A DNA stretch of 64,000 bases from Elusimicrobiota bacterium (GTDB taxonomy: Bacteria > Elusimicrobiota > Elusimicrobia > UBA1565 > UBA9628): positions 38,961-102,960 of the forward strand of contig JACRNU010000055.1 of assembly GCA_016234805.1 (NCBI GenBank), read 5' to 3'. Position numbers and translations under genes: made by a program. Positions 1,532 to 31,595 of this stretch are shown here, one piece after another (position 1 is the stretch's first letter; every line of letters begins with the position of its first letter). A model generated the notes under the pieces. The model was given only the letters and a program-made list of their open reading frames with translations, made no database searches and was not told the DNA's origin.

Positions 1532-2248
1532 ATGGCTCGTGAAATACTCGTGGCCTCCGCTGACCCGCAGTTCCTCGACAGCGTGCGGAGGCAGTTCGAG
1601 GAAGCTGGAGTCTCCCTGCGCCTGCTCGACCACCTGCCGGACCTTTCCGGGCTCATGGCAGCGGGCGCCATCCAGGCCGCGGTCCTGGACCTGGACCTCA
1701 GCCCCAAGCCTCCTTGGGAGATCCTCTCCCAGTCCAGGCTCCATCCTCAGACGGCCAAGATCCCCATCGTGGCAGTCACGGGCCTCTACACCAACCCGCG
1801 CTTCGTGATCGAGGGCCTCAAGGCCGGGGCGGTCGAATACCTCCTCAAGCCCGTGGACCCCAGGGTCCTGGCAGCCAGGGTCGAAGCCCTGGCCTCTGCC
1901 ATGGAACGGCGGCGCAAGGCAGGCGGAGCCTGGGTCCTGCGCACCCCGGATGACCGCATCCTCCTCGACCTCAGGGCGCACAAGTGCGTGGTCCGCGGTC
2001 CTGGAGGGAAGGAAGAAGAGGCCGGCCTCTCGCCCAAGGAGTTCTCGCTCCTGGCAGCCCTCCTGGGGAGATACGGGGAACTGGTCCGCAAGGAAGAGCT
2101 CATGCGCGTGCTCTGGCCCTCCGCGACCAAGACCACCAGGTCCAATGAGATCACCCTGGCTCAGTTCATCGCGCACCTGAGGCAAAAGGTCCCGGCATTG
2201 AGAGAAAGACTCAAGACCGTTTGGGGTTTGGGATTCAGGCTGGAATAA
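1532..2248 (+). CDS. OmpR-family response regulator (REC + winged helix)
   Basis: Receiver domain followed by LSPKEFSLLAALLGRYGELVRKEELMRVLWP...VPALRERLKTVWGLGFRLE winged helix; ATG at 1532 rather than 1370. Confidence 0.8.
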   Translation: MAREILVASADPQFLDSVRRQFEEAGVSLRLLDHLPDLSGLMAAGAIQAAVLDLDLSPKPPWEILSQSRLHPQTAKIPIVAVTGLYTNPRFVIEGLKAGAVEYLLKPVDPRVLAARVEALASAMERRRKAGGAWVLRTPDDRILLDLRAHKCVVRGPGGKEEEAGLSPKEFSLLAALLGRYGELVRKEELMRVLWPSATKTTRSNEITLAQFIAHLRQKVPALRERLKTVWGLGFRLE

Positions 2249-2323
2249 AGGTGTCACCAGTATTCATCAATCATTCATAATTACGATATTGATTATTCCA
2301 TCTTCCTCATATATGCTTATATC

Positions 2324-3697
2324 GTGCTCCGCAAGACCTGGCTCTGGGCCTTTCTGGCCTTCTCTCTCCTCCTGAAACCCGGCCTCGGGTCCGCCTATGT
2401 CTCCAGCGGAGGGGACTGGGAGCTCATCAGGTCCGTGCACGGCGAGATCGGCGGAGACCTGACCGGCTCGGATTACAAGGTGACGCATTCCATGGGCGAG
2501 CCTTTCATCGCCCTTTCCGCCCTGACGGGCGGCGCGGCCGCCAGCTTCGCGGGCTATCTCTCCCAAGTCCCATCCTTCTCCAACGCCGGCACCTCGATCA
2601 CGGTCGCCGGGGGTTCCTCCACCACGGTCACCTTGGACGGCATCGTCTACGGGATCAAACCCGGGGACTCCGTGGTCGTCAGCTTCAATAACGAGATGAC
2701 CTCCACCACCCTGCCCGGAGCGGTCACGGTCACGGCCATCCTCGACAACCTGGGCAACGCCGTCTCAGCAGGCCAGGCCTACACCCTGACCTACTCGGCC
2801 ACGGAGCAGGCTGCTTATGTCAGCCTCGGAGCCGGGTGGCCCAAAGGCACCCTCTTCCTGCTGACGATCTCCACGCACGCCGAGGAGATCAACGGCTCGC
2901 GCCTGGTGAACTTCTCCACGGTCAATTTCGCGACCGCCCGGGACTTCGCGGCCGCCAACGTCGTCTTCGCCCTCGGGGACCCGTCCACCAAGGTCGAGAT
3001 CCCGGCCAGGGCCTTCCCCTCCGACTACAGCGTCGCGGTCAGCACCGGGGTCCGGAGCCAGACCATCACCACGGCCGACGAGACCATGGCCGCGAACCTC
3101 GGCGCGGCCAGCAGGCCCTTCAAGAAGGTCCAGATCGACGCCTTCGGCCCGACCATGGAGCGGTGGTCCGCCAACCTCAACGCCCAGGCCTCCATCATCA
3201 TCCCCTTCGACGACCTCAACAGCGACGGCAGGGTGGACGACACGAGCCCCGCCATCCGCAGCAAGACCGTGTGGATGTGGCGCCTCGACGAGGGCGCCAA
3301 GCTCTGGGTCCGCCAGCCGCGCTCGAGCCTCGATTTGGCCAACAAGCGCGTGGTCCTGCCCGCGGACCACTTCTCCACCTACGCCCTGGCCGGTTCCGCG
3401 GACACGGATGTCTCCCTTTCCTACGCCTTCCCCGTGCCCTTCCGGCCCTCCGGCGGCAACCCAGCCCGCTACGGCACCTGGGCGGACGGCATCCGCTTCA
3501 CGAACCTCCCCTCCACTGGCAGAATCAGGATCTTCACCATCTCGGGCGAGCTCGTCCGCGAGCTGGAAGTCGTGGACAACCCCCAGAGGTGGGACGTCAA
3601 GAACCAGGTCAACGAGGTCGTGGCCAGCGGCGTCTACATCTGGGAGGTCACCTCGGGCCAGAACCGCAAATCCGGGAAGCTGATGGTCGTCAAATGA
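2324..3697 (+). CDS. Secreted surface protein with FlgD-like/Por-type C-terminal domain
   Basis: Signal peptide-like N-terminus; C-term GRIRIFTISGELVRELEV...SGVYIWEVTSGQNRKSGKLMVVK. Confidence 0.65.
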   Translation: MLRKTWLWAFLAFSLLLKPGLGSAYVSSGGDWELIRSVHGEIGGDLTGSDYKVTHSMGEPFIALSALTGGAAASFAGYLSQVPSFSNAGTSITVAGGSSTTVTLDGIVYGIKPGDSVVVSFNNEMTSTTLPGAVTVTAILDNLGNAVSAGQAYTLTYSATEQAAYVSLGAGWPKGTLFLLTISTHAEEINGSRLVNFSTVNFATARDFAAANVVFALGDPSTKVEIPARAFPSDYSVAVSTGVRSQTITTADETMAANLGAASRPFKKVQIDAFGPTMERWSANLNAQASIIIPFDDLNSDGRVDDTSPAIRSKTVWMWRLDEGAKLWVRQPRSSLDLANKRVVLPADHFSTYALAGSADTDVSLSYAFPVPFRPSGGNPARYGTWADGIRFTNLPSTGRIRIFTISGELVRELEVVDNPQRWDVKNQVNEVVASGVYIWEVTSGQNRKSGKLMVVK

Positions 3698-6086: not shown

Positions 6087-7474
6087 GCCTGAAGACCCGG
6101 TTCGGCCTGGTCATCGGCGCCATGGTGCTCTTCGTGGTGGCTGCCACGACCGGCATCCTCTATTGGACCGAGAAGAGCTTCCTTGCCCGCGAAGCCATGG
6201 AGCGCCAGGAGACCGCCCTGGCCGCGCTCTCCCAGGTGGCCCGGGAGAGCCACCTCAGCCAGGACGACCTCATGCTCATCAACTACGTGCTGAGCCTCCC
6301 GGCCAAGGACCCGGACATCCTCTTCGCCTATGTGGCGGCGCCTGACGCCAAAGGCGTGCCCCAGGTCCTGGCCCACACCATCAAGGACCTCTCTGGAGTG
6401 CCCCTTTCGACCCTCCCCCCGTCCCCTCCTGGCAGCCGGGTCCTAAGAGAGACCGTGCCGCAGAGACCTGATGCCGCGGCCGAGGCTGTGTTGGCGGTGT
6501 CGCAGGAAAAGGTCGCGGCTTCGGTCGAGGCGAGCCTTTCGCGCACCCGCAAACGCATCGCCGGAGTCACCGGGGTCATGGTCCTGCTCGGCTTGACCGC
6601 TTCCACGGCCCTCGCAATATCGCTCACCCGCCCCATCTCCAGGCTCGCGCAGGGAGCCGGGCTCCTCGGCCAGGGCAAGCTCGGCACCCGCATCCCGGCC
6701 GAAGGGTCGGACGAGATCGCCCAGCTCTCCCGGGAGTTCAACAACATGGCACACCGTCTCGAGAAGCTCGACGAGATGAAGAAGGACTTCGTGTCCTCGG
6801 TCACTCACGAGCTCAAGAGCCCCCTGGCCGCCATCGACTCCACCCTCGAGCTCATCCTCCACGAGAGCAAAAAGGAGCGCGACCCGTCCAAGTGGCTCGA
6901 GGACGTGGCCGCCATCCGCAACCACACCGGCCGGCTCTCCCGCTTCGTCACCGACCTCCTCGACCTTGCCAAGATCGAGAAGGGAGCCTTCTCCATCCAG
7001 AGGGCCGACCTCGACGTGGCCGAGACCGCGCGGGAAGTGACGGCCTTCCTCTCCCCGCTTGCGGACAAGAACGGGGTCTCCCTGCGCGGGCCCAAGGACG
7101 GCGCCGGCCTCCCGAGAGCCTTCGCGGACAGCGAGCGCGTGCGCCAGGTCTTCATCAATCTCGTGTCCAACGCCCTTAAGTTCACCCCGAAGGGCGGTAC
7201 CGTCTCCGTCGAGATCGCGAAGTCTGACAACCGCCTGCTCTGCTCCGTATCCGACACCGGCATCGGCATCAAGCCCGAAGACCTGGGACGCATCTTCGAC
7301 AAGTTCGAGCAGGTCCGGGAGGCTCGCAGCGCCGCCCAAGGGCCCAAGGGCACGGGCCTGGGCCTGTCCATCTGCAAGGCCATCGTGGAGGCCCACGACG
7401 GCAGGATCTGGGCCGAGAGCGAGCCGGGCAAGGGATCAAAATTCTGTTTCACCCTGCCCGGAGGCAAGGCATGA
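6083..7474 (+). CDS. HAMP-domain sensor histidine kinase
   Basis: HAMP (RPISRLAQGAGLLGQGKLGTRIP), HisKA FVSSVTHELKSPLAAI, HATPase GTGLGLSICKAIVEAHDGRIW; GTG start. Confidence 0.9.
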   Translation: MSLKTRFGLVIGAMVLFVVAATTGILYWTEKSFLAREAMERQETALAALSQVARESHLSQDDLMLINYVLSLPAKDPDILFAYVAAPDAKGVPQVLAHTIKDLSGVPLSTLPPSPPGSRVLRETVPQRPDAAAEAVLAVSQEKVAASVEASLSRTRKRIAGVTGVMVLLGLTASTALAISLTRPISRLAQGAGLLGQGKLGTRIPAEGSDEIAQLSREFNNMAHRLEKLDEMKKDFVSSVTHELKSPLAAIDSTLELILHESKKERDPSKWLEDVAAIRNHTGRLSRFVTDLLDLAKIEKGAFSIQRADLDVAETAREVTAFLSPLADKNGVSLRGPKDGAGLPRAFADSERVRQVFINLVSNALKFTPKGGTVSVEIAKSDNRLLCSVSDTGIGIKPEDLGRIFDKFEQVREARSAAQGPKGTGLGLSICKAIVEAHDGRIWAESEPGKGSKFCFTLPGGKA

Positions 7475-22220: not shown

Positions 22221-22265
22221 ATTGATTTCAATCAATGCACAACTTTCCCCAGGATATGCTATAAT
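22221..22265 (+). promoter_or_regulatory. Candidate promoter and operator for the fatty-acid-like operon
   Basis: ATTGATT-TC-AATCAAT palindrome 22221-22236; TATAAT at 22260-22265; ATG at 22282. Confidence 0.45.
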
Positions 22266-22281
22266 CTCATCCACAGACCAG

Positions 22282-23268
22282 ATGACTGACACCACCAGCA
22301 CCTCAAAGCCGTTCGAGAACACGGGTTACTGGGCCGTCATCCTTGGGGGTTCTTCGGGCTTTGGCCTGGCAACAGCCAAGCGCTTGTCTAGAGCCGGGAT
22401 GAACATCCTCATCGGCCACAAGGACACGGAAGGCACGGTCGAGACCGTGCTCAAGCCTCACTTTGACGAGATCCGGGCCCAAGGGGTCAAGCTCGTCACC
22501 CACAACACCAACCTTTTCGATGAGGACGGACGGGGTGAGGTGTTCGAAAGCATCGCCCGGAACGCCGGCCCAGGAAAGGTCCACCTCTTCATGCACTCCA
22601 TCGCCGCAGGGGCCTGCAAGCTCCTGATCGAGGACAAGGGGCCGGATTTCAAAGGCAAGGCCATGGCCGGGCTTGCGGATGCCCTCAAGAAGGAAGGGGT
22701 GGCGGTCACCCCTGAAGTCCTCCGGAAGGCCGTGAACGAGGCCTTTCATGGCGGAGGGGCTGATGCCCTGCACACCCTGGCGGACAGCAGGATCCCCTAC
22801 CGGGACACATTATTGGAAGAACCCGATCTTCAGCGCACCATCGGGATGATGGGCTACGACTACCTGCTTTGGGGCCGGGAACTGGCCAAGGAAGGCCTGC
22901 TCTCCAGATCCGCCAGGCTCGTGGGCCTCACCTCGGAAGGCAACACCGTGTCGTGGAAAGGCTACGCTGCCGTGTCCGCTGCCAAGTGCGGGCTCGAAGC
23001 CTGCGCCAAGGCCATGGCGGTCGAGCTCGGCCCCCTAGGGGTCCGGTGCTTCATCCTTCAACCCGGCATCACGGACACCCCGGCCGGCAATGCCATACCG
23101 AATTTCGACTTGATGAAGGCTGAGGCGCGCATCCGCAACCCTTCGCGCCGCCTCACCACCCCGGAGGACGTGGCCGAGGTCGTGTGCGCCATGTGCCTGC
23201 CGGGGTTCGACTGGGTCAACGGCGCCGTCATCCGCGTGGACGGCGGCGAAGCAGTGTCAGGAGGCTGA
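22282..23268 (+). CDS. SDR-family enoyl-ACP reductase-like protein
   Basis: VILGGSSGFGLATAKRL, HSIAAG, YAAVSAAKCGLEA, GITDTPAGNAIPNFDLM; FabI-like length. Confidence 0.75.
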   Translation: MTDTTSTSKPFENTGYWAVILGGSSGFGLATAKRLSRAGMNILIGHKDTEGTVETVLKPHFDEIRAQGVKLVTHNTNLFDEDGRGEVFESIARNAGPGKVHLFMHSIAAGACKLLIEDKGPDFKGKAMAGLADALKKEGVAVTPEVLRKAVNEAFHGGGADALHTLADSRIPYRDTLLEEPDLQRTIGMMGYDYLLWGRELAKEGLLSRSARLVGLTSEGNTVSWKGYAAVSAAKCGLEACAKAMAVELGPLGVRCFILQPGITDTPAGNAIPNFDLMKAEARIRNPSRRLTTPEDVAEVVCAMCLPGFDWVNGAVIRVDGGEAVSGG

Positions 23269-23274
23269 ACAAGG

Positions 23275-24185
23275 ATGAAGCTGAACATTCTCGGGATGGG
23301 CTGGTATCTGCCGAAGAACGAGATCACCAATGATTTCCTTCATAAGGAAGTCGGCCTCGAAAAGGGGCCGGACTGGGTGGACTCGCGCCTCGGCATCTAC
23401 CGCAGGTTCTCCGTCCTGACCAAGGACTACATCCTCAAGACCAAGAACCAGAACCCCGCCCAAGCCATGGCCCACGCCCGCGCGCACGGGGAGACCCCGG
23501 TGACCATGGGCATCAAGGCGGCCAAGGACGCCCTCAAGATGGCCGGCGTCAGCCCGGACAAGGTCGGCATGGTCATGGCCAACAGCGACACCCCCTTCGA
23601 CATGGTGCCGGCCACGGCCAACCTCATCGCCAAGGGCCTCGGCGTGCGCAACGGCGCGAACTGCGACGTCAACTGCGCCTGCTCGAGCTTTGCCAAGCAC
23701 ATGCAGATCCTCTCCGACACCCGCCCCGAACGGGTGCCCGAGTTCGTGCTCTGCGTCCAGACCGCGGCCTACACCGCGCGCATCGAGTATTCCCCCAACT
23801 CCATCGACCCCTACATCTTCGGCGACGGTGCCTGCGCCCAGGTCCTTTCCACCAAGCACCAGGGCAGGCTCACCGTGGAGCCCATGATTTTCGAGACCAA
23901 CCCGGACGCGGCGGAGACCATCCTCCTCGATGCCGCCGGCCATGTGAGGCCTTCACCGTGGCCCACCAGGCCAACTACGTGATGCAGAACTCCGTGCTCC
24001 ACCACCTGAACCTGCCCGAGAAAAAGCATCTCCGGAACGTCCATGAGCAGGGCAACATCGCGGCAGCCGGGGCGCCTTCGGCCATCGCCCAGAACCTCCA
24101 CCGGTTCAACAAGGGCGACAAGCTCGTTTACGCGGTCCTCGGCGCGGGCCTGGCCTGGGGCGGCGGGTACATGGAGGCCAACTAG
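23275..24185 (+). pseudogene. Beta-ketoacyl-ACP synthase III (FabH)-like, disrupted by deletion/frame change near 23940
   Basis: ORF 23275-23982 holds ...CACSS; ORF 23958-24185 in another frame holds AHQAN and GNIAAAGAPS; Cys-to-His spacing is non-integral in codons. Confidence 0.75.
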
Positions 24186-24188
24186 GGC

Positions 24189-24911
24189 ATGGACGAGATC
24201 GCGGTCGTCACCGGAGCGGGCGGAGGCATCGGCAGCGCGGTCGCGCTCATGATCCACGATAAATCCGAGGGCGCGCTCAAGCTCGCCCTGTGCGACATCA
24301 ATAAGAACGCGCTCGCCGAACTCGCGGGCCGCATCCCAGGGTCCTTCCCCGTGGTTTCGGACATCACGACCGAGGCGGGACGCAAGGCCCTCGTGGACGC
24401 GGTCCTGGCCAAGGGCACGCCCTCGGTCCTGGTCAACAACGCGGGCATCGACCGGCCCCACGAGCCCTGCCTCGCCATCCTGGAGTCGTCCTACGACACG
24501 CTCCTCAACCTCAACCTCAAGGCCCCGGCCTTCCTCATGAGGGCCTTCTGCAAGGAGATGATGGCCGCGGGCGGGGGAGCCGTGGTCAACATCAGCTCGG
24601 TCCTGGCCAAGCACGCCCTGACCGGCTCCGCCCTCTACCGGGTGAGCAAGGCGGGCCTCGAGGCCCTGACGAAGCAGTTCGCGGCCGAGTTCGGACCCCG
24701 GGGCGTGCGGGTCAACGCCGTTGCGCCCGGCTTCATCATGACTCCCATGACCGCCAACATCCCGGATGAGACCAAGGAGAAGATCCGCTCCATGATCGCG
24801 CTCGGCGAGTTCGGCACGCCCGAGGCCGTGGCCGAGGCGGTATGGCACCTGGTCGAGAACCAGTACATCAACGGCGTGGTATTGCCGGTGGATGGAGGAA
24901 TGGTCCTGTGA
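24189..24911 (+). CDS. 3-oxoacyl-ACP reductase-like SDR
   Basis: VVTGAGGGIGSAVALMI, NISSVLAKHALTGSALYRVSKAGLEALTK, APGFIMTPMT. Confidence 0.85.
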   Translation: MDEIAVVTGAGGGIGSAVALMIHDKSEGALKLALCDINKNALAELAGRIPGSFPVVSDITTEAGRKALVDAVLAKGTPSVLVNNAGIDRPHEPCLAILESSYDTLLNLNLKAPAFLMRAFCKEMMAAGGGAVVNISSVLAKHALTGSALYRVSKAGLEALTKQFAAEFGPRGVRVNAVAPGFIMTPMTANIPDETKEKIRSMIALGEFGTPEAVAEAVWHLVENQYINGVVLPVDGGMVL

Positions 24912-25393
24912 GCCTCTCCAATGACGAGATCCTGGCCCTGGTCCCCCAGCAGCGGCCCATGCGGTTCATCGACGACATCCTCGAGCTCGACGGGGACCAC
25001 ATCGTGGGCTCCTACACCTGGAAGGAGGAGGACTGCGCCGGCCACTTCCCGGGCAACCCCGTGGTCCCGGGAGTCAAGCTCATCGAGATGGCGGCCCAGG
25101 TGGGCAACGTGGCCTGGGGCATCTACCTCATGTCCCTGGAATCCTCGCCCGAGCAGGTCCGCGACATGGTGGGCTTCTTCACCCGGATCGAGCAGGGGAC
25201 CTTCAAGCGGGTGGTCCGGCCAGGGGACAAGGTCCGCGCCGAGGCCCAGTTCGGAGACGAGGGCTACTTCCGGTCCAACAAGGTGGCCTCCTGCGTGGAG
25301 ATCCGCTTCGAAGGCGGGCCCAAGGACGGTGAGCTCGCCTTCGAGGGCTTCACCTGCGGGATGTGGGTCCCGCGCGCGGAGGTCCGTGATTAG
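24908..25393 (+). CDS. FabA/FabZ-like hot-dog dehydratase
   Basis: QQRPMRFIDDILELDGD...CAGHFPGNPVVPGVKLIEMAAQVG; GTG start overlaps upstream stop. Confidence 0.85.
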   Translation: MSLSNDEILALVPQQRPMRFIDDILELDGDHIVGSYTWKEEDCAGHFPGNPVVPGVKLIEMAAQVGNVAWGIYLMSLESSPEQVRDMVGFFTRIEQGTFKRVVRPGDKVRAEAQFGDEGYFRSNKVASCVEIRFEGGPKDGELAFEGFTCGMWVPRAEVRD

Positions 25394-25474: not shown

Positions 25475-26788
25475 ATGATGATGAAACGCGTCGTCGTCAC
25501 CGGCATGGGCGTCGTGGCCGCCAACGGCGTGGGCCTAGCCGCGTTCCGTTCGGCGCTCAAAGCGGGCCGCAGCGGCATCAAGCGGCACGAGCACCTCCAG
25601 AAGCTCAATTTCTCCTGCCAGATCGGCGGCATCCCGGACCTCACCGAGGAGGACATCCTCAAGGTCCTGCCCGAGCCCGAGTCGCGCAAGCTCGGCGAGG
25701 CCCAGGTCTACACTGCCCTGGCCGCGGTCGAGTGCGCCCGGAGCGCCGGCATCCACGCCGACCTCTACAACGGGTTCAAGGATTCGGCCGTGGACTGGAA
25801 CACCGGCGTGATCATGGGCTGCGGCATCGGCGGCATGGACACCATCTTCGAGGAGATGGGCCCGGCCATGGCTTCGGCCGAGGAAGCCGAGCCCGGCCGG
25901 GGACCTGCTGCCATGGGCACGGATGTCGTGCCCAAGATCATGGGGAGCTCGACGAGCGTCGTGATCGGCCGGTTCCTGGGCCTGGGCAACCTCACGAGCA
26001 GCAACAGCTCGGCCTGCAACACCGGCACCGAAGCCGTCTTCGCCGGCTGGAACCATCTTCAGATGGGCTATGCGGACGCCATGTACGTGGGCGGGGCCGA
26101 GGGCTCCCACTACGGCATCTGGGCAGGGTTCGACGCCATGCGCGACGTGCTCTGCTCCAAGTTCAACGAGACCCCGGAGCGCGGCTCCCAGCCCATGGGA
26201 GCGCTCGCCTGCGGGTTCGTGCCAGGCTCGGGCGCCGCGGTCCTGAGGATCGAGACCCTCGAGGCCGCGCAGAAGCGCGGGGCCCCCATCCTGGCCGAGC
26301 TCCTTGCCGCCTACTGCAACTCAGGCGGCCAGCGCGACGGCGGGTCCATGACCTTCCCCAACCCCGAGGGTGTGACCCGGTGCATCCGCCGGGTCCTCAA
26401 GGACGCCGCAGTCGAGCCCTCGGCCATCAGCCTCATCAACGGACACCTGACCTCCACGGGCGCCGACCCTCAGGAGGTCTCGAGCTGGATGAGCGCGCTC
26501 GAACTTGCGCCGGAGAAGTTCCCCCTCATCCAGTCCACGAAGTCCATGATCGGCCACGGCCTGGGCGCGGCCGGGGCCCTGGAGTCCGTGGCCGTGGTGG
26601 ACCAGCTCGGCCAGGGCTACGTCCACCCCTCCATCAACTGCGAGGAGACCCACCCGCGCATCAAGGCAATCGAGCGGAGCATCCCGCGCTCTTGCATGCA
26701 GAAGCGCCTCGACCTGGCCATCAAGGCGTCCTTCGGATTTGGAGACGTGAATGGCTGTCTGCTGTACAAACGCTGGGACGGGAGGTAA
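25475..26788 (+). CDS. Beta-ketoacyl-ACP synthase II (FabF)-like
   Basis: SSACNTGTEAVFAGW active Cys, INGHLTSTGADPQE, STKSMIGHGLGAAGALESV. Confidence 0.88.
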   Translation: MMMKRVVVTGMGVVAANGVGLAAFRSALKAGRSGIKRHEHLQKLNFSCQIGGIPDLTEEDILKVLPEPESRKLGEAQVYTALAAVECARSAGIHADLYNGFKDSAVDWNTGVIMGCGIGGMDTIFEEMGPAMASAEEAEPGRGPAAMGTDVVPKIMGSSTSVVIGRFLGLGNLTSSNSSACNTGTEAVFAGWNHLQMGYADAMYVGGAEGSHYGIWAGFDAMRDVLCSKFNETPERGSQPMGALACGFVPGSGAAVLRIETLEAAQKRGAPILAELLAAYCNSGGQRDGGSMTFPNPEGVTRCIRRVLKDAAVEPSAISLINGHLTSTGADPQEVSSWMSALELAPEKFPLIQSTKSMIGHGLGAAGALESVAVVDQLGQGYVHPSINCEETHPRIKAIERSIPRSCMQKRLDLAIKASFGFGDVNGCLLYKRWDGR

Positions 26789-26797
26789 TTGTAAACA

Positions 26798-27745
26798 ATG
26801 GCATTCAAGCGCAAGGAAACGACGGTCGAAGCCGTGGACCTCAGCACGATCACGCCCGAGGACGCGCAGACGCGGATCATCGCCGGGGTCAAGAAGTACG
26901 CCACCAATGAGGCCAACTGGTCCAAGGCCGACCGCAACACGCCCTACCTGGGCCACATCACCGGGATGGGCATCGAGTCCGCGAACCTGGCCGACATCAC
27001 CATGTCCATCGAGCGCCAGTTCCTGACCAAGAAGACCAAGAAGGTCCCGGTCGCCCTAAAGGGCTCTCCTTCGGGTGGGGGCTCCGAGACCGAGTTCACG
27101 CTGGAAGACGGCGACCTCGGCAAGCTCCGCATCCTCGAGGGCCAGGACTCCGTCATGGCCACCCCGGGCCTGACCATCCAGAAGCTCATGGAGCTCGGCC
27201 ACCTGCCGACGAACGCCTCCTACCTCGACGGCACGGCTTCCTTCGCCACGATCGTCTCCGTGGGAGCGGGCCACCGCCTCACGGACGCCCTGCGCAAGAC
27301 GGCCCTCCGCATGGAGAAGTCCCAGCCCGCGGAGAAGACCGAGGCGCGCGCGAACCTCGAGTCCCTCATCAAGCAGGCGCGGGACTTCGAGACCCTGCTC
27401 GGCGACCCGGCGGCCCTGGCCGCGTCCAAGCAAGGTGACTTCCAGACGGACAAGAACTCGCTGGAAGCCCTGACCCACGAGCTCTCCATCGTCAACGAGA
27501 AGCTCAAGGGCGTCACCTCGAGCGACGACCCCTCCCGCTCGACGAGCCTGCGCGCGGAAGAGTCGCAGATCCGCACCCGGATCAGGATGATGCGCCAGAA
27601 ACTGACGGTCTCGGAAGAGACCGCCCGCGGCGCCGGGGTCCGAAAGTCCGTGGACACGGCGAAGTTCCAGGAGGTCCGAGCTCTGCTCGCGGAGACCATC
27701 AAGCTCGCCGTAGAGGCGCTGGCCCAGGTCCCTGCCGGCTGCTGA
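26798..27745 (+). CDS. Hypothetical protein with possible N-terminal ACP-like segment and coiled C-terminal region
   Basis: Open frame within operon; GMGIESANLADITMSIERQF around Ser61 resembles ACP helix II; rest unrecognised. Confidence 0.6.
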   Translation: MAFKRKETTVEAVDLSTITPEDAQTRIIAGVKKYATNEANWSKADRNTPYLGHITGMGIESANLADITMSIERQFLTKKTKKVPVALKGSPSGGGSETEFTLEDGDLGKLRILEGQDSVMATPGLTIQKLMELGHLPTNASYLDGTASFATIVSVGAGHRLTDALRKTALRMEKSQPAEKTEARANLESLIKQARDFETLLGDPAALAASKQGDFQTDKNSLEALTHELSIVNEKLKGVTSSDDPSRSTSLRAEESQIRTRIRMMRQKLTVSEETARGAGVRKSVDTAKFQEVRALLAETIKLAVEALAQVPAGC

Positions 27746-27769
27746 ACGGACGCTGACCAGGTCCGGTCC

Positions 27770-27800
27770 CCGTGGGGGAGGGCATCCCCCTCCCCCACGG
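27770..27800 (+). terminator. 13-bp GC hairpin CCGTGGGGGAGGG-catcc-CCCTCCCCCACGG between operon genes
   Basis: Read directly; no T-run, may be attenuator or RNA-stability element. Confidence 0.45.
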
Positions 27801-27826
27801 GCCGGTTCCCTGCGGCAGCGTCGCCC

Positions 27827-29227
27827 ATGACGCTCACCTCTGCGGACATCCGCAACCTCAGGCTCCAGAGGCTCCTGGGGGACATCGCCGTCCCCTTCAC
27901 CCACGTGTTCCTCTCCCTGGCCTCGCGCTATTTCGGGTACCGATTTCGGGACCTCGAAGCCTTCCGCCGCAAGGTCTGGAAGGCCCTCGACGGGCACGAC
28001 GGCCCGGTCATATGGGCCGCCAACCACCTGACCCTCTGGGACTCCTTCGTCATCTTCTGGGCGGTCTTCCCCCTCCTCAGGACCCTGGAGGGCCGGCGCC
28101 TTCCCTGGAACACCCCTGAGCACACCAACTACTACAGGAACGGCGGGTGGTTCAAGTGCCGCGTCATCCGGGTCTTCATGTACCTCTGCCGCTGCATCCC
28201 CTTCCTGCGCGGGGGCGAGGACGAGTTCTCGGTCCAGTGGCGGCAGATCGCCTTTGAGAAGTGCGTCTGGGTCCTCTCCGAGGGAGGCACTGTCTTCGTC
28301 TTCCCAGAAGCCACCCGCGCCCGCAACGGCTGGTTCGAGGCTGACAAGCCCAAGGACTTTCTCGGCAGCCTGTGTGTTCGCGTTCCGCGTGCCAAGGTCC
28401 TTTGCCTCTACCTGAGAGGCGAGGGCCAGGCAGGCACCACCTCCTACCCGGCTTGGGGCGAGACCTTCCGCATGGACGCCGAGCTCTGGGACCCTGCCAC
28501 GGGCCCGGCCAGCACGGCCCGGTCCATCGCGGCCGGCCTCTTCACCCGCGTCGGAGCCCTGCAGGAAGCCTGGTTCAGCGCAAGCACCCTGCTCAAGAAC
28601 TGCTCCGGCAACGACATCGTGGACCTCAAGGGTCACCTGCTCCGCGAGCACTTCAGCGACGACCTTCTGGACATCGACCCGGAGTGGGCAGGCCGCCTGC
28701 TCACCTCGAAAGAGCTCGAGTACCTCGGAGCCCGACCCGCGGCCGAGCTCTTTTCGACCTTCTGGCGCTTCCACGCTGCCAAGGAAGCGGCCTCCAAAGC
28801 CCTGGCCCAGGCCGGGGTCAAGGTCCTGCCCGGAGGGTTCTCCACTATCGAGGTGGACCTCTTCCAGAACCGGGCCCGGCACCTGCCCACCCTGCTGGAG
28901 TGCCGCCTGCGCTTCACCGACGACGACGCGGACAAGATCCACTGCGTCGCGGTCCTCCGCGGGGGCCGCATCGGAGACGACTCCGAGCCGGGCGACGTGC
29001 TCTGGAAGGTCGCCGAGGTCCCGCCGGGCGAGTCCGGCTCAGGGTTCTGCCGCGACCTAGCCCTGGACCTCATCGCCGAGTCCTCCGACGACATCTCCCC
29101 GGCCTCCCTCTCCTTCACCGAGATCGACGACATCCCGCGCGTGATGCGCGCAGGCAAGCCCCAGGACTGGGGCGTGTCCATCTCGCACGCGGGAAGGTAT
29201 GTTGCGTGCAGCTTCATGGTGTCATGA
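27827..29227 (+). CDS. Fusion: PlsC-like acyltransferase + 4'-phosphopantetheinyl transferase-like domain
   Basis: NHLTLWDS (HX4D) and FVFPEATRARNG; then GNDIVDLKGH...FWRFHAAKEAASKALAQAG...VSISHAGRYVACSF typical of AcpS/Sfp superfamily. Confidence 0.75.
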   Translation: MTLTSADIRNLRLQRLLGDIAVPFTHVFLSLASRYFGYRFRDLEAFRRKVWKALDGHDGPVIWAANHLTLWDSFVIFWAVFPLLRTLEGRRLPWNTPEHTNYYRNGGWFKCRVIRVFMYLCRCIPFLRGGEDEFSVQWRQIAFEKCVWVLSEGGTVFVFPEATRARNGWFEADKPKDFLGSLCVRVPRAKVLCLYLRGEGQAGTTSYPAWGETFRMDAELWDPATGPASTARSIAAGLFTRVGALQEAWFSASTLLKNCSGNDIVDLKGHLLREHFSDDLLDIDPEWAGRLLTSKELEYLGARPAAELFSTFWRFHAAKEAASKALAQAGVKVLPGGFSTIEVDLFQNRARHLPTLLECRLRFTDDDADKIHCVAVLRGGRIGDDSEPGDVLWKVAEVPPGESGSGFCRDLALDLIAESSDDISPASLSFTEIDDIPRVMRAGKPQDWGVSISHAGRYVACSFMVS

Positions 29228-30660
29228 CCTGCGTGAGAGGGGAAAAAGGCATCCACAGGATTCCCCTCGCCTTGCCTCGGTCTTTGGAACCCCGAAGGGA
29301 GGACCTGGAGGAAGCCTTGCTGTCCGCCCAGCGCCGACTGAAGGACTTCGCCGACCGGAACGGCTGGGCCGATCTCGTCAAGGATAGATTCGCCGACCAA
29401 GCCGAGATTTTCAATGACAAAGCCGAGTTCGATGCGGCGCTGATCCGGCTGACGGGCGCCGACCCTTCGACCAAGCTGCCCAAGACCTATTCCGCCGCTC
29501 TGGAGAAAGGCGTCTTCTTGTCCGTCTCGCCCAGGCTGTACCAAGAGAACTACCCGCAAGGCTCCGAGGACGGCGCCTTCGAGAAACTGGTCGCCCATGA
29601 GATGGCTCACCGACTGCACATCCGTATTCTGAAAGGAGATGAGGATGCCATGGGGCCGATCTGGTTCTACGAGGGATTCGCCATCCATGCCGCAGGGCAG
29701 TTCGAAACGCTTCCGATCCGGTTGAGCCCCGAGGAGATCCAGGAAGTGGTCGACAGCGCGACAAGAGGCAGCTACGCGAAATACGGCGCCGCGTTCCGGC
29801 ATTTCCTGGAGAAAGCTCCCATCCAGGAGCTGGTGAAAAGGGCCGGAGGCAAGGACTTCCCGGACTACCTGAGACGGATTGACAGGCCTTTTCTTCTGAC
29901 CCAGGCCACGAAAGGCGACTGCAAGGGAACCATCCTGCTGGTCCAAGGCAGCGCGCCCTTCAATATCGACGGCCGCATCCCGGTCAAGGGCCGCTCCGCG
30001 TATCACAACATCGAGTTTTACAGGGATATGGCCGACGCCCTCAACTCCTACGGCTGGGATGTCGTCCGGTATGCCAAGCCCGGCGTCTACAAGGATCGGA
30101 TCGATCTTAATGAATACGACAAAACCGACCTTGCGACCATCATGCGCCAGTTGAACGCCATCTGGAACGAGATGCCGTCCCGGAAGCCCCGCATCATCTT
30201 CGCTTGGAGCGAAGGGACTCTGCACGCTTCGCGATTGCCGCTTTCTGAAGCCAGCGCGGTCATTCTCCTGGGAGCGATATCAACGAACATCAGGGATGTG
30301 ATTCTCGCGCAAGGGGGATCGCCAAAAGAAATAAAGGCCATCAGGAAAATGGGCCGCGAAGAGATGTTGGGGATAGATCGCCCTGCCGGAAGGCTTCTCG
30401 ATGAGCTCGCCATGGCGGACAACTGGCGGTTCTTCGAGAAGCACCCAGATCTTCCCATGCTGATCCTGCATGGGGAAGAAGACACGGAGGTTCCGGCCTC
30501 CCATGCGAAGACATGGAAAACCATGCTGCCCAGGCACCGCATCGACCTTGTCTTGAAGCCGTCCGGCAATCACATGTTCGGAGTCGCGCAATCGCCGGAT
30601 ATCGCTGCCCTGGCAGGGACAATCCAAGGATGGCTGGCGGAGACCCTTCAGACCAAATGA
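29224..30660 (+). CDS. Fusion: HExxH zinc metallopeptidase-like domain + alpha/beta hydrolase-like domain
   Basis: KLVAHEMAHRLH...WFYEGFAIHAAG; C-term IIFAWSEGTLHASRL nucleophile elbow-like and LPMLILHGEEDTEVPASHAKTW...NHMFG. Confidence 0.7.
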   Translation: MTCVRGEKGIHRIPLALPRSLEPRREDLEEALLSAQRRLKDFADRNGWADLVKDRFADQAEIFNDKAEFDAALIRLTGADPSTKLPKTYSAALEKGVFLSVSPRLYQENYPQGSEDGAFEKLVAHEMAHRLHIRILKGDEDAMGPIWFYEGFAIHAAGQFETLPIRLSPEEIQEVVDSATRGSYAKYGAAFRHFLEKAPIQELVKRAGGKDFPDYLRRIDRPFLLTQATKGDCKGTILLVQGSAPFNIDGRIPVKGRSAYHNIEFYRDMADALNSYGWDVVRYAKPGVYKDRIDLNEYDKTDLATIMRQLNAIWNEMPSRKPRIIFAWSEGTLHASRLPLSEASAVILLGAISTNIRDVILAQGGSPKEIKAIRKMGREEMLGIDRPAGRLLDELAMADNWRFFEKHPDLPMLILHGEEDTEVPASHAKTWKTMLPRHRIDLVLKPSGNHMFGVAQSPDIAALAGTIQGWLAETLQTK

Positions 30661-31595
30661 GATACTGCATCCTCTTCGCCGGCCAATCCGTGCAGGAGTC
30701 CGGCATGTGCCGGGAGCTCTGGAAGCTCCCCGCGGCCAGGGAGATCCTCGACCGCTTGAAGCCCTCCCTCGGCTCCGACCTCGAATACGTCACGACCGAG
30801 ATGCCCGAACCCGAACTGGCCAGGACCTTCAACGCCCAGCGGGCCATCCACGCCCACCACCTGGGCCACTGGTTCGCCTACAAAGCCGCGCATCCGGGCC
30901 TGGTCCTCGACGGGAGCGTGGGCCACTCCATGGGCATCGCGGCCGCGCTCGTGGCTGCCGGGGCCATGAGCGTGGAGGACTCAGGCGCCTTCATCCGCGC
31001 CCGGGCCCAGGCCTTCTCAGAAGTGTGCGCGGCCTTCAAGGAGCCCATGGGCCTGGCAGCGGTCATGACGGACTTCCTGGGCGACTACATGGAGAAGATC
31101 GAATCCTTCCCTGGCGTGAGCCTGGCCCTGCACAACACCATCGGCCGCGGCACAGCCGGAGGCACCTTGGCCAGCCTCGAGGCTTTCGCACGGCACAGCC
31201 AAGCCGAAGGGTGGCCCATGAAGATCAAGGTGCTCAAGGTCGAGGGCCCCTATCACACCGCGGCTTTCATGGCTGCCGAGCCGGCCCTGCTCCAGGCCCT
31301 GGCCGGCATCAGGCTCGACTCTCCCAAGGTCCCGGTCTTCATGGGGACTTCGGGCAAGTCTGAGACCGACCCGTCGGAGATCAGCCGTCTGCTCGCTGCC
31401 CAGCCCCACACGCGGGAGAAGCACTTCGACGCGGTCTGGGCCGCCTGCGACTCGGGGTGCAGGAACTTCCTCGAGATCGCGCACAAGCCCCAGCCCGTGA
31501 CCTGGATCAGCGACCAGCTTCAGGACGAGGAAGGCGGGCTCATGGCAGGCGTGACCACGCTCGCGGTCAAGACCGCGGACCTCGCCGCCCACTGA
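30657..31595 (+). CDS. Malonyl-CoA:ACP transacylase (FabD)-like
   Basis: FAGQSVQESGM, SVGHSMGIAAALVAAGAMS, VEGPYHTAAFMAAE. Confidence 0.85.
   Translation: MRYCILFAGQSVQESGMCRELWKLPAAREILDRLKPSLGSDLEYVTTEMPEPELARTFNAQRAIHAHHLGHWFAYKAAHPGLVLDGSVGHSMGIAAALVAAGAMSVEDSGAFIRARAQAFSEVCAAFKEPMGLAAVMTDFLGDYMEKIESFPGVSLALHNTIGRGTAGGTLASLEAFARHSQAEGWPMKIKVLKVEGPYHTAAFMAAEPALLQALAGIRLDSPKVPVFMGTSGKSETDPSEISRLLAAQPHTREKHFDAVWAACDSGCRNFLEIAHKPQPVTWISDQLQDEEGGLMAGVTTLAVKTADLAAH

What the first reader, a model, noticed from the sequence alone, without database searches (positions are those of the whole stretch)
26798..27040. Hypothetical protein in the FAS-like locus carries an ACP-like phosphopantetheine-site motif (Ser61)
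GHITGMGIESANLADITMSIERQF lines up with the ACP helix-II pattern (LGxDSLxxVELVMALEExF): G-x-[D/E]-S followed by an amphipathic helix ending E-x-x-F, and is preceded by a helix I-like EDAQTRIIAGVKKYA. A PPTase-like domain is encoded one gene downstream. The motif is divergent (ESA instead of DSL), and the protein continues ~230 aa beyond, so this would be an atypical carrier protein. Inference from eye alignment only.
Basis: inference. Interest (0 to 1): 0.7.

Follow-up and report, generated by a model that had tools for sequence, protein, structure and literature searches.

The report
Hidden acyl carrier in fatty-acid cluster
A conserved Elusimicrobia protein that no family database recognises is most likely the missing acyl carrier (the swinging arm that holds the growing chain) of a self-contained fatty-acid-like gene cluster, encoded right beside the enzyme that would arm it; this is a strong prediction, not yet shown at the bench.

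Summary
The ORF (26798-27745, 315 aa) and its GMGIES61 motif are real. No Pfam or NCBIfam model recognises the protein, PF00550 (PP-binding) included. It is nevertheless conserved in about 36 Elusimicrobiota genomes (52-74% identity), with Ser61 invariant in every copy inspected. Independent tests point to a very divergent acyl carrier. Profile-profile alignment places Ser61 on the ACP phosphopantetheine serine (0-1 of 500 column shuffles score as well). An ACP profile ranks this family above every other ORF in 34 related loci. A model of residues 1-145 starts helix II at Ser61; its best PDB match is Thermus ACP, and 4 of only 10 hits are carrier proteins, though each E-value is weak. The gene sits in a type II FAS-like set (ER, KASIII, KR, DH, KS, MAT) without any recognisable ACP, immediately upstream of an acyltransferase-AcpS (PPTase) fusion with intact catalytic motifs. 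Where the cluster is split, carrier, PPTase and MAT stay together. A predicted beta-hairpin follows helix II and a long coiled coil ends the protein.

The parts
26798..27745 (+). Candidate carrier protein, 315 aa: helix I (20-34), Ser61 at the start of helix II (61-74), predicted beta-hairpin (75-84/100-109), short helix (about 123-132), coiled coil (149-309)
   Evidence: no Pfam/NCBIfam match
26978..26980 (+). Ser61 codon, candidate 4'-phosphopantetheine attachment site
   Evidence: invariant in the family (7, 13, 31); aligned on the ACP serine by hhalign and by ungapped match
27827..29227 (+). Acyltransferase (LPLAT, NHxxxxD) fused to an AcpS-type PPTase domain (GNDIVDL, KEAASKA, SISH)
   Evidence: PF01553 and PF01648 (3); motifs conserved in 32-34 loci; adjacent to the carrier gene in relatives
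25475..26788 (+). Beta-ketoacyl-ACP synthase I/II (Cys-His-His present); 9-nt gap to the carrier gene
24842..25393 (+). FabZ/FabA-like 3-hydroxyacyl-ACP dehydratase
24189..24911 (+). FabG-like ketoacyl reductase
23275..24188 (+). KASIII (FabH-like), with a deletion and frame change near 23946 in this copy
   Evidence: intact in relatives
22222..23268 (+). SDR-type enoyl-ACP reductase (Y-x6-K, FabL/FabI-like)
30513..31595 (+). FabD-like malonyl transferase (GHSMG); travels with the carrier and PPTase genes

Best explanation
The protein is the dedicated, highly diverged acyl carrier of a self-contained type II fatty-acid-synthase-like system of one Elusimicrobiota lineage. Proposed mechanism (inferred): the AcpS domain of the downstream fusion protein attaches 4'-phosphopantetheine to Ser61. 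The FabD-like enzyme loads malonyl on it. KASIII starts the chain; KS, KR, DH and ER extend and reduce it on the same arm. The acyltransferase half of the fusion moves the finished chain to a lipid acceptor. The C-terminal coiled coil probably oligomerises the carrier or docks it to partners. Shown here: the genes, their conserved linkage, the invariant Ser61, the ACP-like sequence register, the catalytic motifs of the partners and the absence of any other recognisable ACP in the loci. Inferred: the modification, the chemistry, the product and the role of the coiled coil.
For: Ser61 invariant in the 30 aligned sequences found by whole-protein search, with residues 61-80 the most conserved block. 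Profile-profile alignment to ACPs in the expected register, 0-1 of 500 shuffles. ACP profile ranks the family directly after true carriers among 1,691 ORFs, and housekeeping ACPs are among the top non-self hits of the reciprocal search; across the window and 34 related loci the 20 best ACP-profile hits are all this family. N-terminal model: helix II starts at Ser61; Foldseek best PDB hit is T. thermophilus ACP 1x3o (2.3 A over 57 columns), and 4 of 10 hits are carriers. Co-occurrence with the PPTase fusion and KS across 342 genomes of the phylum, the few exceptions being fragmented or incomplete assemblies. Order ER-KASIII-KR-DH-KS-ORF-PPTase-MAT conserved; in one genus-level group with the cluster split, ORF-PPTase-MAT stay together and the KS part has no ACP either. 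Catalytic motifs of partners conserved.
Against: No PF00550 match in any member. hhalign probability only 24-32%; Foldseek E-values 2 and above. Model confidence is modest (pLDDT 64) and low in the loop before Ser61. Helix III/IV could not be aligned by sequence. The genome also encodes a canonical ACP that could serve the cluster. Helix II is less acidic than in AcpP (E60, D66, E72 kept, but R73 and K78/K79 follow).
Confidence: 0.78

Rival explanations
1. The cluster's enzymes use the housekeeping AcpP encoded elsewhere; this protein is a coiled-coil scaffold or regulator of the synthase, and its helix-II-like stretch is an ACP mimic or a coincidence.
For: A canonical acpP lies in a plsX-fabG-acpP-rnc context in the same genome. 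Half of the protein is coiled coil. PF00550 does not match.
Against: The most conserved block is the Ser61 helix, not the coiled coil. A dedicated PPTase is always adjacent although the genome has three other ACPS-family genes. ACP register and structural hits.
Confidence: 0.14
2. A former carrier domain that has lost phosphopantetheine but keeps docking surfaces for KS/PPTase (pseudo-ACP).
For: Strong divergence, Ala/Ser in place of Leu after the serine, inserted hairpin.
Against: Ser61 and the preceding E60 are invariant, which a pseudo-carrier would not need; the PPTase motifs are intact.
Confidence: 0.05
3. Unrelated protein; the motif is a chance resemblance and the neighbourhood is misleading.
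For: Individual statistics are weak (hhalign 24-32%, Foldseek E about 2); a PROSITE PS00012-like pattern (recalled) occurs about once in 31,000 residues of background ORFs.
Against: Sequence, structure and context tests agree on the same serine; shuffles and 1,691 background ORFs rarely or never reach it.
Confidence: 0.03

Closest known systems
Type II acyl carrier protein (AcpP family, Pfam PF00550 PP-binding)
   Same: Helix I, G-x-[DE]-S at the start of helix II, positions matching D35/S36/E41/M44/E47/F50 of E. coli AcpP (E60/S61/D66/M69/E72/F75), FAS enzymes as neighbours
   Different: No PF00550 match; about 20 extra residues before helix I, longer helix I-II loop, beta-hairpin after helix II, about 160-residue coiled-coil tail
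Aryl polyene (APE) type II clusters, e.g. E. coli ApeA-R (PMC8253772)
   Same: Discrete KS, KR, DH, ACP and a lysophospholipid acyltransferase thought to attach the product to a lipid anchor
   Different: APE_Ec has two canonical ACPs and no PPTase in the cluster (PMC8253772); here one divergent carrier, an in-cluster PPTase fused to the acyltransferase, plus KASIII, ER and MAT
Secondary lipid / PUFA-type FAS/PKS, Type R of Elusimicrobium minutum (PMC3098273)
   Same: Elusimicrobia; dedicated PPTase gene downstream of the synthase
   Different: Type R is a multidomain KS-MAT-CLF-ACP(3-6)-KR protein with ACP repeats; here all enzymes are discrete and the carrier is not recognisable
Specialised ACPs of lipid pathways (e.g. 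the sphingolipid ACP of Rhodobacteria, PMC9386255, abstract only read)
   Same: A pathway-dedicated ACP next to its pathway enzymes
   Different: Those are described as ACPs; this family escapes the Pfam and NCBIfam profiles and carries a coiled coil

Membership tests
Acyl carrier protein (PF00550 PP-binding) | Profile match above the curated cut-off | tested here: not met
   No PF00550 hit at E up to 10 for the window protein, none listed among 28 members at E up to 1, ORF not among own-genome matches
Acyl carrier protein (PF00550 PP-binding) | Conserved serine in G-x-[DE]-S at the N-terminus of helix II | tested here: met
   S61 invariant; helix 61-74 in the N-terminal model; hhalign and ungapped match put S61 on the ACP serine
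Acyl carrier protein (PF00550 PP-binding) | Four-helix bundle fold | tested here: inconclusive
   Model pLDDT 64; matches ACPs (1x3o TM by target 0.54); hairpin 75-109 follows helix II; helices III/IV not established
Acyl carrier protein (PF00550 PP-binding) | Modified to the holo form by a PPTase | not testable with these tools
   Only indirect: neighbouring AcpS-type domain with conserved D, KEA and SH motifs
Type II FAS-like cluster | Discrete KS, KR, DH, ER, MAT, KASIII with catalytic motifs | tested here: met
   KASIII of this window copy is disrupted and KS Cys is Ser in L062
Type II FAS-like cluster | An ACP gene in the cluster | tested here: inconclusive
   No canonical ACP in 34 related loci or in the split g9 loci; the ORF is the only candidate
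AcpS-type PPTase (PF01648) | Profile match and catalytic motifs | tested here: met
   27.3 bits against cut-off 25; GnD..D, KEA..KA, SH conserved

The most novel reading that the evidence does not exclude
A new carrier-protein family: an ACP domain with a beta-hairpin inserted after helix II, fixed to a long coiled coil that multimerises the carrier and gathers discrete FAS enzymes into a complex, served by a fused acyltransferase-PPTase that both arms the carrier and unloads it onto a lipid.
Probability: 0.35. Interest if true: 0.75.

Novelty: new variant of a known kind. Interest (0 to 1): 0.6.

Why it matters
Carrier proteins are usually found by one short profile. A functional carrier family with no member visible to Pfam would mean that 'ACP-less' FAS/PKS clusters in uncultured phyla may have hidden carriers, findable by context (a serine-invariant helix next to a PPTase). 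It would also give a natural test of how far ACP sequence can drift while a dedicated PPTase and KS keep recognising it, and it points to an uncharacterised lipid of Elusimicrobiota.

Tried and rejected
PDB sequence search with the N-terminal profile found no relative. Foldseek of the full-length model hit only coiled coils and helical bundles, so residues 1-145 were modelled alone. Excising the presumed hairpin insert did not extend the ACP alignment into helix III/IV (39 of 200 shuffled tails did as well), so homology of the 115-145 stretch to ACP helices III/IV is not claimed. A second 'GQDS' at residues 115-118 was considered as an alternative site and rejected: Ser118 is Ala in most members. 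A search with the 72-residue core over 196 genomes of the class found no credible more distant relative. Literature searches for Elusimicrobia FAS clusters, PPTase-acyltransferase fusions and ACPs with insertions gave nothing describing this family in the held library.

Full report
What is there. The window lies in an Elusimicrobiota genome (the relatives are Elusimicrobia MAGs). The ORF 26798-27745 encodes 315 aa and starts 9 nt after a KS gene. The next gene (27827-29227) encodes an acyltransferase fused to an AcpS-type PPTase domain (PF01553 and PF01648). Upstream are an enoyl reductase, KASIII, FabG, FabZ and KS; downstream, after a gene that is not conserved in relatives, is a FabD-like transferase. 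Catalytic motifs of these enzymes are conserved over the related loci. No Pfam or NCBIfam family fits the 315-aa protein.

Conservation. A whole-protein search found homologues in 35 of 44 genomes of the same family. A profile search of 342 genomes of the phylum listed 37, nearly all in that family plus one full-length copy in a neighbouring family; one of the 37 (G232) is only a weak coiled-coil match, leaving 36. Ser61 is invariant in every aligned copy (not seeded on the motif). Searches agree, but the loci were seeded with GIES[SA]NLAD and TMSIERQF, so their invariance is partly by construction. The block 61-80 is the most conserved stretch; the C-terminal coiled coil is much less conserved.

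Is it a carrier? Sequence. Profile-profile alignment of residues 23-75 with a diverse ACP set puts GMGIES61 on LGADS of the ACPs, with an hhalign E-value of 8.5e-4 for a single comparison but a probability of only 24%. Column shuffles reach the score in 1 of 500 (residues 1-146) and 0 of 500 (1-88). The ungapped 18-mer match to the own ACP is equalled by 8 of 20,000 shuffles, and only true carriers and this family reach 34 or more among 1,691 ORFs. An ACP profile run on the window and 34 related loci returns this family as its 20 best hits, with no canonical ACP among them. Most members (22 of 28) also fit PROSITE PS00012 as I recall it; the window copy misses it by Ala62.

Structure. The full-length model (pLDDT 83) has helix 20-34, helix 64-74, strands 75-84 and 100-109, helix 123-132 and a coiled coil from 149. 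Modelled alone, residues 1-145 (pLDDT 64) start helix II exactly at Ser61. Against 350,542 PDB chains that model has only 10 hits at E up to 10. The first is T. thermophilus ACP (1x3o, 2.3 A over 57 columns), and three more are carrier protein chains of Bradyrhizobium ligase complexes. None is significant alone. The fold is therefore consistent with an ACP with a hairpin after helix II, not proven.

Context. The PPTase fusion was found at full strength in the same genomes as the ORF and directly next to it; isolated absences or partial copies lie at contig ends (G020, G025, G031). KS orthologues follow the same distribution. The gene order is conserved over the related loci. In genus-level group g9 the cluster is in two places: ER-KASIII-KR-DH-KS in one, ORF-PPTase-MAT in the other, and neither has a canonical ACP. 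A carrier, its activating enzyme and its malonyl loader staying together is what the carrier reading predicts. The own genome has a housekeeping ACP (plsX-fabG-acpP-rnc context) and three other ACPS-family genes, so the cluster's PPTase is not the only one.

Mechanism. Most likely Ser61 receives phosphopantetheine from the AcpS domain, the chain is built on it by the cluster enzymes, and the acyltransferase half moves the product to a lipid. The modification, the product and the coiled-coil function are inference.

Relation to known systems. It works like an ACP. As a member of PF00550 it fails the profile test, so I describe it as a carrier-protein variant, not as a filed member. Aryl polyene clusters and the Type R secondary lipid synthase of Elusimicrobium minutum (PMC8253772, PMC3098273) are the closest cluster-level analogues I found, and differ in having recognisable ACPs. 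No description of this family was found in the held literature, which is not exhaustive.

Noticed in passing
window 23275-24188: The KASIII gene is disrupted in this copy: compared with intact relatives (about 331-340 aa) it lacks roughly 90 nt with a frame change near 23946, leaving the C-terminal motifs in another frame; a real lesion or an assembly error.
   Followed up: partly
window 27746-27826: The gap between the carrier and PPTase genes folds into a very strong GC hairpin (-59 kcal/mol, z about -5) without a T run; most relatives have much shorter gaps there, so it is not conserved. It could set carrier and PPTase mRNA levels apart.
   Followed up: partly
L058 8742-9878 (-); L066 about 1990-3130: Some related clusters carry an extra tandem hot-dog gene with FabA-like motifs (MPGCWG), absent from the window copy.
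   Followed up: no
L062 (KS, residues 177-188): The KS active-site Cys reads Ser (NSSASNTGTEAI) in one relative; KS is also split there, so sequence error is possible.
   Followed up: no
L144 (own genome contig C31), minus strand, AcpS at 6987-7361: A separate free-standing ACP (GGIVDSFSMV motif) lies near its own AcpS gene, a second carrier-PPTase pair in this genome.
   Followed up: partly
L080: One homologue is in a MAG labelled Acidobacteriota (JPNG_maxbin.061) with the full Elusimicrobia-type cluster; mislabelled bin or transfer.
   Followed up: no
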